Shown here: piece by piece, positions 2,932-37,630 of the stretch
Layout: every line of letters starts with the position of its first letter
Numbering within the stretch: position 1 is the first letter of the stretch
Source of the DNA: Candidatus Zhuqueibacterota bacterium
GTDB taxonomy: Bacteria; Zhuqueibacterota; Zhuqueibacteria; Residuimicrobiales; Oceaniaggregativiventaceae
NCBI GenBank assembly: GCA_014728085.1
Contig: WJMF01000234.1
Span: forward strand, 1 to 64,000
Length of the DNA stretch: 64,000 bases
Reading direction: 5' to 3'
Notes under the pieces: model-generated
The model's input: the letters and a program-made list of their open reading frames with translations, nothing else
Told to the model about the DNA's origin: nothing
Database searches by the model: none
Position numbers and translations under genes: made by a program

Positions 2932-4401
2932 TTACATATAACCCAGTTTTTTAAAACGCTCTTTTATCAACTCTTCGTCATCGGAATCCGGTTCTATAGA
3001 TAACTCGCCGTTTTGCGGCTTGTATTTTTGCCGCAGTTGTTGCCGTTTCATGTCCAGAGTTTTTACTTTTGCCAGTAATTCTGAGCGCATATTTTCTGCC
3101 AGCTCTTTTTGCTGCGGGGCGATGTCCGTCAATTCAGCAGGGTCTTCATTCAGGTCGTACAACTCTTCCCGTCCCACATGCACTTTTTGACAATAATTGC
3201 ACCATCCGTCATTATCGACAGCATAGATATATTTATAATCTTCTGTTCGTATCGCTGATTTTTTTTGCACGTAGGATTCTTCTACGAAAATCTCATCCCG
3301 ATGAGCCGTTTTGTCGCCGCGGATGATCGGTAAAAGCGTGTTCCCATCCAGTTCGTCAATATTGCAATTGATGTCAAAAAGGTCGCACAGGGTAGGAACG
3401 AGATCAACGTGTTGTACGAATGATTCTATCCGTTTCCCGGCAGGTATGGATTCGGGGTAATGCATGATAAGGGGAACATGTGTGGTTTCATCATACAATC
3501 CATGATGATCAAAATAGATATCGTGCTCGGTCAAACTGTCACCATGATCAGACGTGATGATGAGCAGTGTATCATCCCAAAGTTGATTTTCCTTTAAATG
3601 GTTAAATAATTTACCCAGCTGGAAATCAACGTATTTGACGGAACCGCGATATTTTTCCATAAGCAGCGATTTCGAGTCATAAATCGATGATTTATCGAGA
3701 TAGCTTTTCGGACAATAATAGGGCGTGTGCGTATCCCAATAGTGTAAAAAAAGAAAAAATGGATTTTCCTGGGAGTGATCGATGAGATCGTTCGCTATTT
3801 GGGTGACAAAACGGGCATCCTGCAATTTCGCAAGATTGAAGGTAAAGGCAAAAGTACTCAATACATCTTTCATGCCTTTGATGAGTTCCTTCGGGGATGA
3901 TTTTCGCATGGGCTTGTAAAGTTTCAGAATGGGCAAATGACCGAGCAAATAATCGCGATACAAACCGGGCAGAGTGACCAGGTGGTATTTAAGCCGATCC
4001 AGTCCCCTGCGTTCGAGCTCATATCCATAATCATCGAATCCTTCCTTAAACCATCGGGACATCCAGTCGACGGCCAGGGTTTTGTGCCCGGATTGTTTCA
4101 TGTATTGCGCCAGCAGCTTTGTGCCTGTCTCCAGGAAGAGCCGGCGTTCCTCCTCTGTCACTTTGTCTCCGTGGTTCATGATCCCATGTGAACGCGGATA
4201 TTTGCCGGTGAGAATAGATGTCAAACTTTGATCCGTTGTGTTCCAGCATGAAAACGCTTTTTCGAACAGGGTACTCTCTGATGCGACCTTGTCAATATTA
4301 GGACTCGGCTCTCCCTGCATTCCATAACATCCCAAATTCCGGGCCCGAAGGGCATCGATTACAATTAAAATTACATTAGGCGTTTTTCTCTTCTTTTCCA
4401 T
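2932..4401 (-). CDS. Sulfatase-fold hydrolase/transferase with Thr in place of catalytic Cys
   Basis: Alkaline-phosphatase superfamily protein of 489 residues. VIDALRARNLGCYG (15-28) gives the first metal-binding Asp (D16). TSDHGDSLTEHD (about 284-295) supplies the second Asp-His pair, and YFDHHG follows. The active-site segment reads TTDQSLTSILTG (55-66): aligning to C-x-P-S-R-x-x-x-L-T-G puts Thr56 where formylglycine-type sulfatases have Cys, with Gln for Pro and Leu for Arg. Thr nucleophiles are known in phosphoethanolamine and lipoteichoic-acid type members of this superfamily, so the substrate may be a phospho- rather than sulfo-ester. No signal peptide is evident, unusual for a secreted sulfatase. 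AAAGG precedes the ATG. First gene of the minus-strand run, behind a candidate promoter at 4469-4497. Confidence 0.85.
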   Translation of the reverse strand: MEKKRKTPNVILIVIDALRARNLGCYGMQGEPSPNIDKVASESTLFEKAFSCWNTTDQSLTSILTGKYPRSHGIMNHGDKVTEEERRLFLETGTKLLAQYMKQSGHKTLAVDWMSRWFKEGFDDYGYELERRGLDRLKYHLVTLPGLYRDYLLGHLPILKLYKPMRKSSPKELIKGMKDVLSTFAFTFNLAKLQDARFVTQIANDLIDHSQENPFFLFLHYWDTHTPYYCPKSYLDKSSIYDSKSLLMEKYRGSVKYVDFQLGKLFNHLKENQLWDDTLLIITSDHGDSLTEHDIYFDHHGLYDETTHVPLIMHYPESIPAGKRIESFVQHVDLVPTLCDLFDINCNIDELDGNTLLPIIRGDKTAHRDEIFVEESYVQKKSAIRTEDYKYIYAVDNDGWCNYCQKVHVGREELYDLNEDPAELTDIAPQQKELAENMRSELLAKVKTLDMKRQQLRQKYKPQNGELSIEPDSDDEELIKERFKKLGYM

Positions 4402-4692
4402 TACAGACCTTTATTTTTCTCATCGCTGCTGCCTAACGCGGTCAGCAAGCTATGTAATTCCAACATTTAATTTATAGATTTTTCAGGTAACTTACAATGT
4501 TGAAAATTTTATCTGATACCCGTCTTTTCTTTTGCTGAACTGAATATAAAAAATTCATCGCTCCCATTCAAGGGTTTACTCGGATTATACATCCTCAATT
4601 CGGCGTTTACAGCTCCGGTTCTTTTAAAAAAAGAATGCCGTGAAGATGAAAAAACACTTGTAATCTGAAAACAGCTGTTATATATTTCAACT
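4402..4692. other. Intergenic region between divergent genes
   Basis: No coding sequence is supported here. It contains the candidate promoter of the minus-strand sulfatase-fold run. That promoter is enclosed by a 7-bp inverted repeat (CAACATT at 4461-4467, AATGTTG at 4496-4502) that could be a regulator site. No convincing promoter or ribosome site for the plus-strand gene at 4693 was found. Confidence 0.5.
4469..4497 (-). promoter_or_regulatory. Candidate sigma-70 promoter for the sulfatase-fold operon
   Basis: On the minus strand, TTGTAA (4497-4492), a 17-bp spacer and TAAATT (4474-4469). The leader to the ATG at 4401 would be about 60 nt. Found by eye, no experimental support. Confidence 0.35.
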
Positions 4693-5838
4693 ATGAAAAA
4701 ACAGGTGACAAATCCCAATTCCCGGGAAATTCGGGATTTGGCAAACAAAACCGTTCTGAACGGTTTTGTATTGATTATATCTCTCTTTTGCTTTTCTGCT
4801 TTGTCGCAAGATAAAGGGGCAAGCCCCATGGCAATCAATGATAGCTTGCTGCATTCCTGGTCAAGGCCTTATCGCCAGTGGATTTATTATCCCGGTTACG
4901 TGGTCGACGCCGGTCTGGAAAAAAAACTACATTTTGAAATGGTTGACGGCCCGAACGTCTATCGGCATAATGACCGGTGGCACATGCTCTATTTTGGTTA
5001 TGACGGCAAAGGATACCAATCCTGTCTGGCAGTATCGGAAGATTTGATCCACTGGAGGCCGGCCGGCCTGGTAATGAGCTATGGCGAGCCACATGCATTC
5101 GATCATGGTGGTGTTGTTATGGTGGGACCTTTATTCGACGACAATAACGTACAAACACCTCCGAGGTTGAAAAATTGGCAAGATCATTATTGGGTTCTCT
5201 ATGGATGTTATCCAATACAGGGCGGATATGAACTTGGTCAAGGTGGTCAGGGACTGGCCTGGAGCGAAGATGGATTGAAATGGAACCGTTATTCCAAAAA
5301 AGTTCCCATCCTTTCAATAGGAAAGGGAGCAGCATGGGAAAACAGGGTAATTTACTCCCCCTGTTTGATCGAACATGAAGGTCAATTCTGGAACTTTTAC
5401 AACGCCAAAGGCAAAAACGGCAAAGAACAAATCGGTTTTGCTACCTCCAAAGATCTCATTTCCTGGAAAAGATACCCGGACAACCCGGTCATTAAAAATA
5501 ACGCAGATGGTTATGATGCCCTCCTTGCTGCGGACGCTGAAATCTATCGGGATAAAGATCACTGGGTGATGTTTTATTTTGGCGCTTCTCGAAATAATCC
5601 GGACCAGCAGGTTCATGCCCATACCATGGTGGCTTTTTCCTATGATTTGATTCACTGGCGCAAACATCCGGAACCTATTTTCAAAGCAGGCGGACATCCA
5701 CAAGGCCTGGATAACACCCATGCCCATAATATTTCTCTTATCTACAATCCTGAGAACGACACACATTATATGTTTTATTGCGCTGTTGGCGACCAGGGGC
5801 GCGGCATAGGATTATTAACCAGCAAACCGGTCGAATAA
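4693..5838 (+). CDS. Secreted five-bladed beta-propeller glycoside hydrolase-like protein (GH43/GH32/GH117-like)
   Basis: A 381-residue protein with repeated blades typical of the GH32/43/117/130 fold: RWHMLYFGYDG with SEDLIHW (about 97-124), HYWVLYG with SEDGLKW, FWNFYNAKG with SKDLISW, HWVMFYFGAS with SYDLIHW, and a last blade HYMFYCAVGDQG. Blade-end W motifs recur four times. A hydrophobic segment (about 25-38) ending SALSQ looks like a signal peptide, implying an exported enzyme on plant or algal glycans. I cannot assign a family or substrate. The ATG at 4693 has no clear ribosome site and the first 25 codons carry two strong dyads, so the true start or the function of that DNA is doubtful. 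A DUF4838 lipoprotein gene follows 123 bp later on the same strand. Confidence 0.7.
   Translation: MKKQVTNPNSREIRDLANKTVLNGFVLIISLFCFSALSQDKGASPMAINDSLLHSWSRPYRQWIYYPGYVVDAGLEKKLHFEMVDGPNVYRHNDRWHMLYFGYDGKGYQSCLAVSEDLIHWRPAGLVMSYGEPHAFDHGGVVMVGPLFDDNNVQTPPRLKNWQDHYWVLYGCYPIQGGYELGQGGQGLAWSEDGLKWNRYSKKVPILSIGKGAAWENRVIYSPCLIEHEGQFWNFYNAKGKNGKEQIGFATSKDLISWKRYPDNPVIKNNADGYDALLAADAEIYRDKDHWVMFYFGASRNNPDQQVHAHTMVAFSYDLIHWRKHPEPIFKAGGHPQGLDNTHAHNISLIYNPENDTHYMFYCAVGDQGRGIGLLTSKPVE
4709..4769. repeat. Two adjacent inverted repeats at the start of the glycosidase gene
   Basis: The first dyad spans 4709-4740, with perfect 8-bp outer arms (CAAATCCC / GGGATTTG) around a TTCCCGGGAA core. The second spans 4745-4769, with perfect 12-bp arms around one central T (core AACCGTTC-T-GAACGGTT). 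They are 4 bp apart and inside the annotated frame. They could be operators, or stem-loops in the mRNA leader if translation starts further down. Confidence 0.7.
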
Positions 5839-5961
5839 GGTCGTTCTCCTGGTGGATAACCGATCTGTGGACCTATTTCCGAACCGAGACGAGAAAGACA
5901 CCACCGCTTTTACCCAAAATCAAAATATCATTATATAAAAATTCGTCAGGGAGGTTCGTCC

Positions 5962-8211
5962 ATGTTTTCTTATCGTTATATAGTAAAACTGGTAATATTG
6001 GTTGTTTTTTCCACAATATGGACATTAACGGCTTGCAGCGGCAACCGCCTGGAGCTCACTCCCGCCTGGCGTATTTATGTGAACGCCAAACCATTTCCAA
6101 CCATAGCAGAAGCATCAAAGGCGGAGCAGGATATTGACTGGAGCGGAGATCAATACAAAAAGATGGCCGCCTGTACGCATAGTTTTGCTGCCAAAGAACT
6201 GCACACATTTCTGAAAAAATTATGCCGCTGTGAAGATCAGGATTCAGCATTTATCCTGATGTCGTTATCAACCCCTTTAACGGAAAACGCTATTGTGCTA
6301 ACAGATCTCAAGACTGCCCAGGAAAATCCCGACCTCATGCACGTAATTAAAGATCACCAACTCGTTGCCAAACTCGATAGCAAGGAAAGTTTTGCGATCG
6401 TGTCGGAGCAAAGAAGACTCTATATCATTGGTGCGGATCGGACCGGTACCCTTTATGGTGTATACCACCTTCTTGAATCGTTCGGCATCCGCTGGTACGG
6501 CCCTGAACCCTTTGAAGAAGTGATTCCATCTCATAAGATTTTACATATTACAAAACCCGTCATCCAAAAACCGGCGTTTGAGACGCGGGGGTTTTGGGCA
6601 TGGGAGGATCGCGGCAGTCGCGACTTTTATCTGTGGATGGCCCGAAACCGTATGAATTTTTGGACAATCGCTGAACCGAATCGTCCTTTTCTAAAAAAGA
6701 TTGGAATGCGACTGACAGTAGGCGGACATCAGCATTTCCATGATTTTCTCAATCCCGGTGCAGAATATCCCTATAACCACCCCGCTTTTCAGGGTGACGA
6801 GAATAAAAAGAAAGATCCATACCGATATAGTAAAAAAGAGTATAAAGGCGATAAAGACAATGACGGGATATTGACATTTTTTGAAGCGCATCCTGAATGG
6901 TATGGCTTGATCGATGCAGAGCGCAAGACCTTTAAATATGAATTCGGCACCAACATTTGCACATCCAACAGCGATGCCGTCTCTGAACTCACGAAAAGGA
7001 TGGTTGATCAACTGGCAGAGGGTAAATGGCAGCAGGCAAACAGCCTTAATTTTTGGCCTATAGATGGAGGAGACTGGTGTCAATGTAAAAACTGTGAACC
7101 GCTCGGTTCTCCAACGGATCGCTTGCTCATACTGGTGCATCAGGTCCATCAGGCAATCGAGGAAGGGCGCGATTCGGGTAGAATCAATCGCGACATTCAG
7201 GTTATCTTTCCGATCTATCATGAGACACTCCCCCCTCCCACACGCCCGTTGCCCGAGGAATTTAATTATGAGAACTGTATTGGAACCATTTTTCCGATCA
7301 AACGCTGTTATGTGCATTTTTTGGATGATACCTTGTGCACCGAATATAATACCCGTATCTGGAATGATTTTCTCGGCTGGACAGAGCAACGGCCAAAATA
7401 CTATAAAGGACAATTTTTCATTGGTGAATATTTTAATGTGAGTAGAATTAAAAGCCTGCCGGTTTTATACCCAACTATAATGGCCCATGATATTCCCCTT
7501 TATTATCGTTATGGTATCCGGCATGCTCACTATATGCATGTCTATACCTCTCTGCTGGGGATGAAACGGTTGAACAATTATCTTTTCGCCCGTTTACTCT
7601 GGAATCCCGAGCTGAAAATGGATGATCTGATGCAAAAATACTATCACGATCTCTACGGACCTGCAGCTGCATTGATGCAGCGTTTATACGAAAACATGGA
7701 ATATGCCATGTCGAGCGTTAAACAGTGGCGTCATACCGATCATCTGGCACAAAGAATAATAGATGACAAAAAACCGCTTTTTCATCTGCAACACCTGAAA
7801 TTAAAAGCATATCACCCGGTAGAAAACGACGGTGTCGATCTTGAAGAAAGTCTCAAGGCTCTGCAGCAATGCCGGGAGATCATCGATTCAGTAAGACAAG
7901 TGGATTACCCGCAAGATATCGAACAGAGATTGGCGGAAGACGACCAAAACCTTCGTTATGCGGAAAACACGGTCAGCTTTTACTACTGGTTTACACAGGC
8001 CATAGAGGCAAAACGTCGTGGTGACATGGAGAGGGCAGAATCACATTTCCAACGAACGATACCGTATGCGCGAGGTCTTGAGGCAGAAAAGGAAATCGTA
8101 CAAACGGCATCTTCGCATGCCAATGCCGCTGATGGCCTGAAGGCAACCCGTGTGGAAGCGGTTTATAAAAAATTCGGAAATGAGCTACTGCGGAGCGACT
8201 GGGAATGGTAG
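5962..8211 (+). CDS. DUF4838 domain lipoprotein (alpha-glucuronidase/GH20-like architecture)
   Basis: A 749-residue exported protein. A hydrophobic N-terminus ends in the lipobox LTAC (about 22-25), so it should be lipid-anchored. An N-terminal alpha/beta domain contains RRLYIIGADRTGTLYGVYH (about 152-170) and the FGIRWYGP segment, resembling the N-terminal domain found before GH67 and GH20 catalytic barrels. The middle holds FETRGFWAWEDRG and WMARNRMNFWT, typical of DUF4838 proteins, then a Cys-containing patch GGDWCQCKNCEPLG (about 371-384). A helical region makes up the last 150 residues. Function is not established for the family; a role on uronic-acid or complex glycans is inferred. A GGGAGG site sits 6 nt before the ATG. 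Probably paired with the beta-propeller gene upstream. Confidence 0.85.
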   Translation: MFSYRYIVKLVILVVFSTIWTLTACSGNRLELTPAWRIYVNAKPFPTIAEASKAEQDIDWSGDQYKKMAACTHSFAAKELHTFLKKLCRCEDQDSAFILMSLSTPLTENAIVLTDLKTAQENPDLMHVIKDHQLVAKLDSKESFAIVSEQRRLYIIGADRTGTLYGVYHLLESFGIRWYGPEPFEEVIPSHKILHITKPVIQKPAFETRGFWAWEDRGSRDFYLWMARNRMNFWTIAEPNRPFLKKIGMRLTVGGHQHFHDFLNPGAEYPYNHPAFQGDENKKKDPYRYSKKEYKGDKDNDGILTFFEAHPEWYGLIDAERKTFKYEFGTNICTSNSDAVSELTKRMVDQLAEGKWQQANSLNFWPIDGGDWCQCKNCEPLGSPTDRLLILVHQVHQAIEEGRDSGRINRDIQVIFPIYHETLPPPTRPLPEEFNYENCIGTIFPIKRCYVHFLDDTLCTEYNTRIWNDFLGWTEQRPKYYKGQFFIGEYFNVSRIKSLPVLYPTIMAHDIPLYYRYGIRHAHYMHVYTSLLGMKRLNNYLFARLLWNPELKMDDLMQKYYHDLYGPAAALMQRLYENMEYAMSSVKQWRHTDHLAQRIIDDKKPLFHLQHLKLKAYHPVENDGVDLEESLKALQQCREIIDSVRQVDYPQDIEQRLAEDDQNLRYAENTVSFYYWFTQAIEAKRRGDMERAESHFQRTIPYARGLEAEKEIVQTASSHANAADGLKATRVEAVYKKFGNELLRSDWEW

Positions 8212-11381: not shown

Positions 11382-12572
11382 TTAAAAAAGATTGGATATG
11401 ATTTCATACATACCGACATAGGTCCCTATAGCGCTTCCAAGACCGGTCAGAAGAAAGACCAGAAAGATCCGCAGCAATTTATTGTGCCACCAGGCCCGGA
11501 ATACAGCAACATCATCCGACACGGTTTCAAACTCCTTCACCACCGGCGGGCGAAAATAGGCCTGAATAAATACGGCCACATAGCCTGCACCGATAACCGG
11601 GGTCAGGCTGGTTATCGGTGCGGCAAGAAAAGCGATTAAAATCGTTAAAGGGTGAGCGAATGCCAGAATGGCGCCCAGGGCACATGGAATACCGTTTGCC
11701 AGTACCCAGAACAGGGCATTATCGCCCGCCGCAGCTGAACCTTTTGTAAATCCGATATAGACCAATGAACCGATTATGAATACGGGCAAGCCCCATGCAA
11801 ACCATTTCCAGGTTTTGGAGGGTGGCGGGATAGAGTCGAGCGATTCGAGGTCATAGGTTTTGTCCTGTCTCAATTTCCGGGCAATGCCCTCGCGATGACC
11901 GGCTCCAACCACGGCTACAATTTTATTGCCGTTTGCGGCTTTGATTTTTTGTGCCAAATAGATATCCCGCTCATCGAGCAGTATGGTTTTTAAAACCGGC
12001 AAAAACTTGCCCATTTCAGTGAGCAATTCGGTCAAAACATCTTTTTGACGCAGTTTTGCCAGTTCTTCTTCGTCTAATTCCGGCCGTTCAAAAATACCGG
12101 CCAATCCAAAGGCGAGAAATTTCATTTTTTGCCAAAACGACATGCTGGTCCAGGCACGACGCAATGTGATTCGTACATTGCGATCGGCCAACTCGATCGG
12201 AATTTGATTCTCGTCAGCAACATGAATGGCCTCCAGGAGTTCCGTTCCCGGCATCACACCGAGTTTTTGTCCCAGTCGCTTCTGAAAAGAGGAAAGCAAA
12301 ATATTGATAAAAAGGGTGCTGATTTGCTTCTCCCGTATAACCGCTTTGAGATCAAGACTCTGCCATTTCTTTTTTTCCGACAGGGCTTTATAGCGCTGTT
12401 CGTCCAGTTCAACACAGACGCAATCCGGCTTTTCCGTTTCTATGACCTTGCGAACAAGATCGACGGATTGGCGTGAAATATGAGCTGTACCAACAATGAT
12501 GTATTCTTTTTCCTCATTCAGCCGCAAGACGTCATGACCATAATCATTTTCTTTTGAAACCGGTTTTTGCAA
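11382..12572 (-). CDS. TraB/PrgY family membrane protein
   Basis: A 396-residue member of the TraB family (TIGR00261), named for Enterococcus pheromone-shutdown proteins but widespread and poorly understood. It has the conserved GTAHIS (28-33), CVELDEQRY (about 53-61), and VGAGHREG (about 222-229) motifs of the TIKI/TraB/EreA-like fold. The C-terminal part carries about four membrane helices (roughly 255-275, 290-310, 312-345, 368-392). The TTG start has GGAG upstream. There is no pheromone or conjugation gene near, so a plasmid role is unlikely. The soluble domain may be a metal-dependent protease-like enzyme, by family resemblance only. Confidence 0.82.
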   Translation of the reverse strand: MQKPVSKENDYGHDVLRLNEEKEYIIVGTAHISRQSVDLVRKVIETEKPDCVCVELDEQRYKALSEKKKWQSLDLKAVIREKQISTLFINILLSSFQKRLGQKLGVMPGTELLEAIHVADENQIPIELADRNVRITLRRAWTSMSFWQKMKFLAFGLAGIFERPELDEEELAKLRQKDVLTELLTEMGKFLPVLKTILLDERDIYLAQKIKAANGNKIVAVVGAGHREGIARKLRQDKTYDLESLDSIPPPSKTWKWFAWGLPVFIIGSLVYIGFTKGSAAAGDNALFWVLANGIPCALGAILAFAHPLTILIAFLAAPITSLTPVIGAGYVAVFIQAYFRPPVVKEFETVSDDVAVFRAWWHNKLLRIFLVFLLTGLGSAIGTYVGMYEIISNLF

Positions 12573-15539: not shown

Positions 15540-15582
15540 ACAATAAAAAAAGCGGATAATTGCTATCCGCTTTTTTTATTGT
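15540..15582. terminator. Bidirectional intrinsic terminator
   Basis: Perfect stem with GCGGATA / TATCCGC at 15552-15558 and 15564-15570, loop ATTGC. It is extended by complementary A and T tracts to 15540 and 15582, so it can act on both strands. It ends the transcript of the exported protein gene. Confidence 0.9.
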
Positions 15583-21655: not shown

Positions 21656-22105
21656 CTATGGTCTGGTCTGCATTTTATAGGTAAGCACAAACCGGCTTAT
21701 TTGCGTGAATAAAACCCCTGCCCAAAAATAAAAAAAATGATTTTGAAAAACAGGTACGGACATTTGCAAAACTTTGATCAGATATATAGCTGCGATCAAT
21801 GCCATCAACAAGTATGACAGAGAACCAGCCCGTTTATTCAAGTGAAGTTCAAGCCGTTGCGCGATCATTGCCGTAAGCAGAAAAATGGCCAGCCACGCCA
21901 AAACAAGAGCGCCGATTTCAACTATCCACGATTGAATAATGAAAGGAGAAATCGCAGAGAATTCTGAAAAAACATTCTCTGCGATATTTGCATCAAAGCA
22001 CCCTAACAGAGGAAAACCACACTGATGAGCATAATTAAAATGTATACGCCGAGCATCACCAGAAAAGAAACGACAGTATAAGCCAGTACTTTTTCTTTTG
22101 GGCAC
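21656..22105 (-). CDS. Small hypothetical membrane protein (start uncertain)
   Basis: Three hydrophobic helices can be seen (WIVEIGALVLAWLAIFLLTA, SLSYLLMALIAAIYLIKVL, FFYFWAGVLFTQISRFVLT), ending in a short basic tail. The full frame from ATG 22105 overlaps the upstream Yip1 gene by 103 bp, and its first 45 residues look non-native (they are the shifted frame of that gene). A non-ATG start between about 22000 and 21920 is more likely, but no ribosome site decides it. A hairpin at 21949-21981 lies across this putative start region. No family recognised; the TM pattern supports a real membrane protein. Confidence 0.45.
   Translation of the reverse strand: MPKRKSTGLYCRFFSGDARRIHFNYAHQCGFPLLGCFDANIAENVFSEFSAISPFIIQSWIVEIGALVLAWLAIFLLTAMIAQRLELHLNKRAGSLSYLLMALIAAIYLIKVLQMSVPVFQNHFFYFWAGVLFTQISRFVLTYKMQTRP
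21949..21981 (-). terminator. Hairpin after the Yip1 gene, possible weak terminator
   Basis: Perfect 11-bp arms (TCGCAGAGAAT / ATTCTCTGCGA) around an 11-nt loop, 21 bp after the Yip1 stop at 22003. On the minus strand it is followed by TTTCTCC, a poor U tract, so it may also be an mRNA-processing or stability element. Confidence 0.45.
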
Positions 22106-37598: not shown

Positions 37599-37630
37599 AA
37601 AAAAGGCGGGTAGAAACACCCGCCTTTTTT
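37599..37630. terminator. Bidirectional intrinsic terminator between nrdJ and the STAS gene
   Basis: Stem AAAAAAGGCGGGT / ACCCGCCTTTTTT around loop AGAAAC. A and T tracts on both sides allow it to serve both convergent genes. Confidence 0.9.

What the first reader, a model, noticed from the sequence alone, without database searches (positions are those of the whole stretch)
4709..4769. Two stacked dyads inside the first 25 codons of a secreted glycosidase gene
A 32-bp imperfect dyad and a 25-bp perfect dyad (12-bp arms) lie 4 bp apart just after the annotated ATG, which itself has no ribosome site. This looks like a regulator-binding pair or an RNA structure rather than protein-coding selection.
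Basis: seen in the sequence. Interest (0 to 1): 0.5.

Follow-up and report, generated by a model that had tools for sequence, protein, structure and literature searches.

The report
Paired palindromes inside a signal-peptide gene
Two neighbouring DNA palindromes really do sit inside the start of a gene for a secreted sugar-cleaving enzyme, but no second copy was found in this genome and they look like a small in-frame local insertion rather than a recognisable control switch.

Summary
D2 (4745-4769) is a perfect 25-bp palindrome with 12-bp arms. D1 (4709-4740) is imperfect but strong once two 1-nt bulges are allowed. Among compact dyads (loop up to 3) of the window D2 then ranks first and D1 ties second. 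Synonymous recoding of the peptide never gave both (0 of 20,000), so this looks like a DNA-level feature and not a by-product of the protein.

The regulatory reading gains no support. The D2 core has no second copy with 0-1 mismatch in the genome and no exact copy in 78 related genomes. Of 38 sites examined (of 45, D2's own included), 36 lie inside open frames. The 13 neighbouring proteins scanned gave no DNA-binding family. 5' RNA folding is not unusual.

The dyads coincide with about 18 extra codons in the signal-peptide n-region, missing from four of four aligned homologues. Best reading: a lineage-specific in-frame insertion with palindromic structure, probably made by local inverted duplication (template switching) and tolerated there. 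A private operator, an RNA hairpin or coincidence is not excluded. Interest is low.

The parts
4658..4686 (+). Promoter-like TTGTAA-17-TATATT; would place the transcript start near 4693, at the ATG (possible leaderless mRNA)
   Evidence: Consensus scan only: 6 found in 4400-6100 against 3.3 in shuffles, so weak
4693..5838 (+). Secreted GH130/GH32/GH43-like glycosidase, 381 aa
   Evidence: ORF; Pfam PF04041 9.7e-11, PF00251 1.9e-9, PF04616 3e-9
4708..4761 (+). 18 extra codons (TNPNSREIRDLANKTVLN) in the signal-peptide n-region
   Evidence: 18-residue gap in three of three homologues; with a fourth added the gaps are 17, 17, 18 and 22 residues
4709..4740 (.). D1: imperfect dyad; 15 left-arm bases pair with 15 of 17 on the right
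   Evidence: extended form 4706-4743
4745..4769 (.). D2: perfect 25-bp palindrome, 12-bp arms, 1-nt centre; flagged terminator-like (11 pairs, 4 G-C, loop 3)
4771..4809 (+). Hydrophobic core and cleavage region of the signal peptide (LIISLFCFSALSQ)
   Evidence: Translation, aligned with L057. The signal-peptide reading is by eye; no predictor was run

Best explanation
The two dyads are a lineage-specific, in-frame insertion of about 18 codons into the n-region of the signal peptide of an ordinary secreted glycosidase. SHOWN: the palindromes, their adjacency, their excess over what the peptide requires, the failure to find a second copy in the genome, and the absence of these codons in four aligned homologues. 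INFERRED: the insertion arose by short-range inverted duplication (template switching or quasi-palindrome correction during replication), which turns a stretch into palindrome arms in one or two steps. It was tolerated because the n-region mainly has to stay open and net positive. No dedicated regulatory function is needed.
For: MAFFT opens an 18-residue gap over the dyads against three of three homologues (L057 69%, L018 36%, L048 32% identical), and gaps of 17-22 residues when L019 is added. Taking the 18 residues out leaves MKKQV+GFVLIISLFCFSALSQ; L057 has MNRRAGFLFVIIVCAIINFHENVLSQ. The pair exceeds shuffles and synonymous recodings (0 of 20,000). No dispersed copies by DNA, by a two-hairpin covariance model in the own genome or by peptide (one other hit, E 0.4, not examined). 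Precedent: template switching can make perfect stems in one event (PMC8794818, abstract and start of introduction seen) and changes coding genes in yeast (PMC8604942, abstract seen).
Against: No close relative with the pre-insertion DNA was found, so the insertion is not seen directly. The nearest homologue (71%) is from another family and its DNA match begins at query base 276, beyond the dyads. Homologue starts are the first start codon of each frame (TTG for L018 and L019, GTG for L048), not proven. Perfect palindromes also occur in plainly coding DNA here (RecF-like, 14-bp arms; chorismate-mutase-like, 11-bp arms, names by eye), and another dyad pair, overlapping, lies in a 368-codon frame. 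The true start might be TTG 4738, which would put D1 in the leader.
Confidence: 0.47

Rival explanations
1. A private operator pair: a transcription factor binds one or both dyads at about +17 to +77 from the predicted start and blocks the polymerase.
For: Long perfect odd-centred palindrome with an adjacent related dyad (both CAAA-n-CC ... GG-n-TTTG), just downstream of a promoter-like site; sites at up to 3 mismatches are 45 against 21 for the reversed pattern.
Against: No second site at 0-1 mismatches in the genome. 36 of 38 sites examined, D2's own included, lie in open frames. No exact site in 78 other genomes. None of 13 neighbouring proteins scanned matches a DNA-binding Pfam family (not every ORF was scanned, and one of the 13 matched no family). 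D1 and D2 differ in arm spacing, which one dimer would hardly tolerate (general knowledge).
Confidence: 0.12
2. A cis-acting RNA structure: two tandem hairpins at codons 6-26 tune translation or act as an intragenic attenuator. If translation really starts at TTG 4738, a D1 hairpin would hide the start codon.
For: Folds of -13.5 (4706-4743) and -11.6 kcal/mol (D2); z -3.58 for 121 nt, 1 of 200 shuffles as good; 22 of 2,000 synonymous recodings as stable; D2 scored terminator-like; a start at TTG 4738 would give a 24-residue signal peptide.
Against: 24 of 193 gene starts, this one included, fold as stably. The predicted RNA fold of D1 uses a shifted register, not the dyad's own pairing. Terminator-like sites: 2 found, 1.6 in shuffles. 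No Rfam family at gathering score. No relative was found to carry the element, so covariation cannot be tested. The two hairpins do not exclude one another, so there is no classical attenuator switch.
Confidence: 0.16
3. Chance or codon coincidence in an unconstrained N-terminus.
For: Comparable perfect palindromes lie in plainly coding sequence elsewhere. Gene starts hold no more long arms than interiors (arms of 8 or more: 5 of 193, this gene included, against 4 of 179). Another dyad pair lies in a 368-codon frame. The finding was picked from a whole window.
Against: Two of the four strongest compact dyads of 64 kb are adjacent, and 0 of 20,000 recodings have both.
Confidence: 0.18
4. A single surviving copy of a mobile palindromic element inserted in frame, like Rickettsia palindromic elements.
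For: Palindromic, in frame, absent from homologues.
Against: No other copy in the own genome (in one search only 150 of 1965 first-look candidates were scored). No clear target-site duplication seen by eye. Best model hit in 29 related genomes was E 0.00125 per genome, inside an open frame of 310 codons.
Confidence: 0.07

Closest known systems
Template-switch (quasi-palindrome) mutations
   Same: Local creation of perfect or near-perfect inverted repeats, also in coding DNA (PMC8794818, abstract and part of introduction; PMC8604942, abstract)
   Different: Those events were inferred from ancestral reconstruction; here no pre-mutation sequence is available
Rickettsia palindromic elements (RPE-1/RPE-2)
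   Different: RPEs are repeated families (3.2% of the R. conorii genome, same passages); here no second copy was found
REP elements (GTAG/CGTC-tagged)
   Same: Short palindromes of 20-40 bp, often close to each other, some inside genes (PMC3733652, abstract seen)
   Different: High-copy and tagged; here no second copy was found and neither tag is in 4700-4790 (read by eye)
Terminator-like hairpins of the same genome
   Same: A-rich and T-rich flanks around a stem (e.g. 37599-37630)
   Different: D2 lies inside an open frame, with only 4 G-C pairs and a 3-nt loop

Membership tests
Rickettsia-palindromic-element-like mobile palindrome | Repeated, similar copies in the genome | tested here: not met
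   BLAST of 101 bp: self plus short pieces, best other E 0.04; covariance model R1: in the own genome only the locus itself
Rickettsia-palindromic-element-like mobile palindrome | In-frame insertion in a protein gene | tested here: inconclusive
   Gap of 17-22 residues in four of four aligned homologues, but no close empty-site DNA
REP (GTAG/CGTC) | GTAG or CGTC tag at one end and high copy number | tested here: not met
   No tag in 4700-4790 (by eye); no second copy
Operator of a regulon | Site recurs upstream of other genes | tested here: not met
   No other 0-1 mismatch site; 36 of 38 sites examined (of 45), D2's own included, lie in open frames
Operator of a regulon | Bound by a regulator | not testable with these tools
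   Needs a binding assay
Intrinsic terminator | G+C-rich stem followed by a T run, at the end of a transcription unit | tested here: not met
   The scan flags the shape, but it lies at codons 18-26 of an ORF
Known structured RNA (Rfam) | Reaches a family's gathering score | tested here: not met
   0 matches in the window
Template-switch insertion | Pre-mutation sequence in a close relative from which the arms can be derived | tested here: inconclusive
   No homologue close enough at DNA level

The most novel reading that the evidence does not exclude
A tandem-hairpin element inside the n-region codons of a possibly leaderless mRNA, acting as an intragenic, translation-coupled attenuator: when ribosomes fail to load, D2 acts as a terminator; when they translate, it is melted.
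Probability: 0.06. Interest if true: 0.55.

Novelty: new member of a known kind. Interest (0 to 1): 0.2.

Why it matters
If it is a template-switch insertion, it is a small example of how palindromic DNA can lengthen a signal peptide without breaking the gene. If it is regulatory, it would be a control point inside the coding sequence of a carbohydrate-active enzyme in an uncultured, KSB1-like lineage. Neither would change current understanding much.

Tried and rejected
But 36 of the 38 I looked at (of 45, D2's own included; 7 not fetched; the choice was not random) lie in open frames of 90 codons or more, any of six frames. The closest look-alike by flanks (C157, L053) is inside a radical-SAM-like ORF (family by eye). 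The D1 pattern gave 49 against 4 for its reversed control, but the nearest others were at 2 mismatches and the reversed words contain TAG/TAA, so I gave it no weight.

Dispersed element: DNA, N-terminal peptide, two-hairpin model R1 in the own genome and 29 relatives (17 of 30 genomes had some match at E up to 10, best outside hits E 0.00125 in G009 and 0.044 in G024), D1/D2 unit model R2 in the own genome (best outside hit E 0.009, in an acetyltransferase-like frame by eye). R1 and R2 come from this locus alone (A4 is the same stretch twice; A2 is D1 and D2 with their reverse complements), so their sensitivity is low. The D2 core is exact in 2 viral contigs, not followed. Plasmids: one weak piece, E 0.2.

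Closer homologues: none by the search for related loci; three plasmid records at 34% or less; order (22 genomes) and phylum (82 genomes) gave one 71% homologue (G066). Aligned: L057, L018, L048, then L019 added. Left out: L017 (no evident start), L058 and L059 (no evident signal peptide). One search read the minus-strand loci in the wrong orientation and was redone.

Leaderless test: -10-like words were not enriched at the fitting distance in 40 SD-less genes with an upstream gap of 80 or more, so that idea is unsupported.

Corrected on checking: I had taken the window's dyad pair for the only one inside a gene in the sample. One search shows that the L150 pair is inside a 368-codon frame, cut off by the stretch's end. 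For this I moved the best explanation from 0.50 to 0.47 and chance from 0.15 to 0.18.

Full report
OBSERVATION. D2 is a perfect 12-bp-arm palindrome with a 1-nt centre. D1 without gaps is at background level (22 of 32 symmetric; 32 such stretches in the window), but is strong when two 1-nt bulges are allowed. In a gapped scan with loops up to 3, D2 (13.0) ranks first and D1 (11.5) ties second with two other sites of the window. Twelve dinucleotide shuffles gave one hit of at least 11.5 in all and none of at least 13. In about 462.6 kb of this genome six dyad pairs (each at least 9) lie within 80 bp. The window's pair is the only one of these whose dyads overlap by no more than 2 bases and which lies in a long frame; but an overlapping pair in L150 is also inside a 368-codon frame, and two pairs of L154 lie in a 106-codon frame. 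Synonymous recoding of the first 36 codons gave D1-like in 1, D2-like in 9 and both in 0 of 20,000; perfect arms of 12 or more in 34 of 20,000. The scoring was chosen after seeing the region, so these figures are somewhat flattering.

BACKGROUND. Long perfect palindromes also arise in plainly coding DNA: one with 14-bp arms in a RecF-like ORF (GDNGQGKTN) and one with 11-bp arms in a chorismate-mutase-like ORF (names by eye). Arms of 8 bp or more are no commoner at gene starts (5 of 193, this gene included) than inside genes (4 of 179), and the 5' fold of this gene is reached by 24 of 193 starts, itself included. The lack of a ribosome site is shared by 115 of 193 ORFs (crude longest-ORF starts).

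GENE. The ORF 4693-5838 encodes a 381-aa protein with GH130, GH32N and GH43 matches and an N-terminal hydrophobic run. It is divergent to a sulfatase gene and upstream of a DUF4838 gene. By prfA, the best match is an unnamed bacterial MAG (72%) and the best match with a named lineage is candidate division KSB1 4484_87 (69%), so 'KSB1-like' is a rough label.

COMPARISON. One close homologue was found in 82 genomes of the phylum: G066, 71% identical. Its protein begins MNRRAGFLFVIIVCAIINFHENVLSQ. Aligned with it and two more distant homologues, the window's protein shows an 18-residue insert, TNPNSREIRDLANKTVLN, between MKKQV and GFVLIISL. With L019 added, the four homologues lack 17, 17, 18 and 22 residues there. 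The insert nearly coincides with the dyads. The exact gap placement is MAFFT's and the homologue starts are assumed.

REGULATION. The D2 core occurs once with 0-1 mismatches in the genome and in 0 of 78 other genomes. Sites with up to 3 mismatches were more frequent than the reversed control (45 against 21), but 36 of 38 examined, D2's own included, lie in open frames. Thirteen neighbouring proteins gave no DNA-binding family. So no regulon is visible; a private operator cannot be excluded. The predicted RNA fold keeps D2 but pairs D1 in a shifted register.

MECHANISM. The best-supported reading is a lineage-specific in-frame insertion with palindromic structure, most simply explained by short-range template switching (PMC8794818, abstract and part of introduction seen; PMC8604942, abstract seen). 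D1 and D2 resemble one another (CAAA-n-CC ... GG-n-TTTG), which would fit successive local events; this was not tested statistically. RPE-like mobility is disfavoured because no second copy was found. RNA regulation and coincidence remain possible.

VERDICT. A real but minor feature; interest is low.

Noticed in passing
window 4651-4681: Imperfect direct repeat AAAACACTTGTAAT / AAAACAGCTGTTAT (17-nt spacing) with the 10-bp palindrome AACAGCTGTT at 4670-4679, overlapping the promoter-like site; a more usual place for an operator than the dyads.
   Followed up: no
window 15540-15582: 19-bp perfect stem with 5-nt loop between two + strand ORFs, terminator-like; the longest arms in the scan.
   Followed up: no
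window 21951-21985: 12-bp perfect stem with an A-rich 11-nt loop, in a 149-aa minus-strand ORF of unclear status between larger ORFs.
   Followed up: no
window 11587-11621: 12-bp perfect stem inside the TraB/PrgY/gumN-family ORF.
   Followed up: no
L149 2722-2750: Perfect 29-bp palindrome (14-bp arms) inside a RecF-like ORF beside the GDNGQGKT motif: an example of codon coincidence.
   Followed up: partly
L150 19905-19969: Two overlapping dyads (scores 10.0 and 11.0) inside a 368-codon frame.
   Followed up: partly
L195 1203-1221 and L196 2830-2848: The 19-bp core AAACCGTTCNGAACGGTTT occurs exactly in two viral contigs.
   Followed up: no
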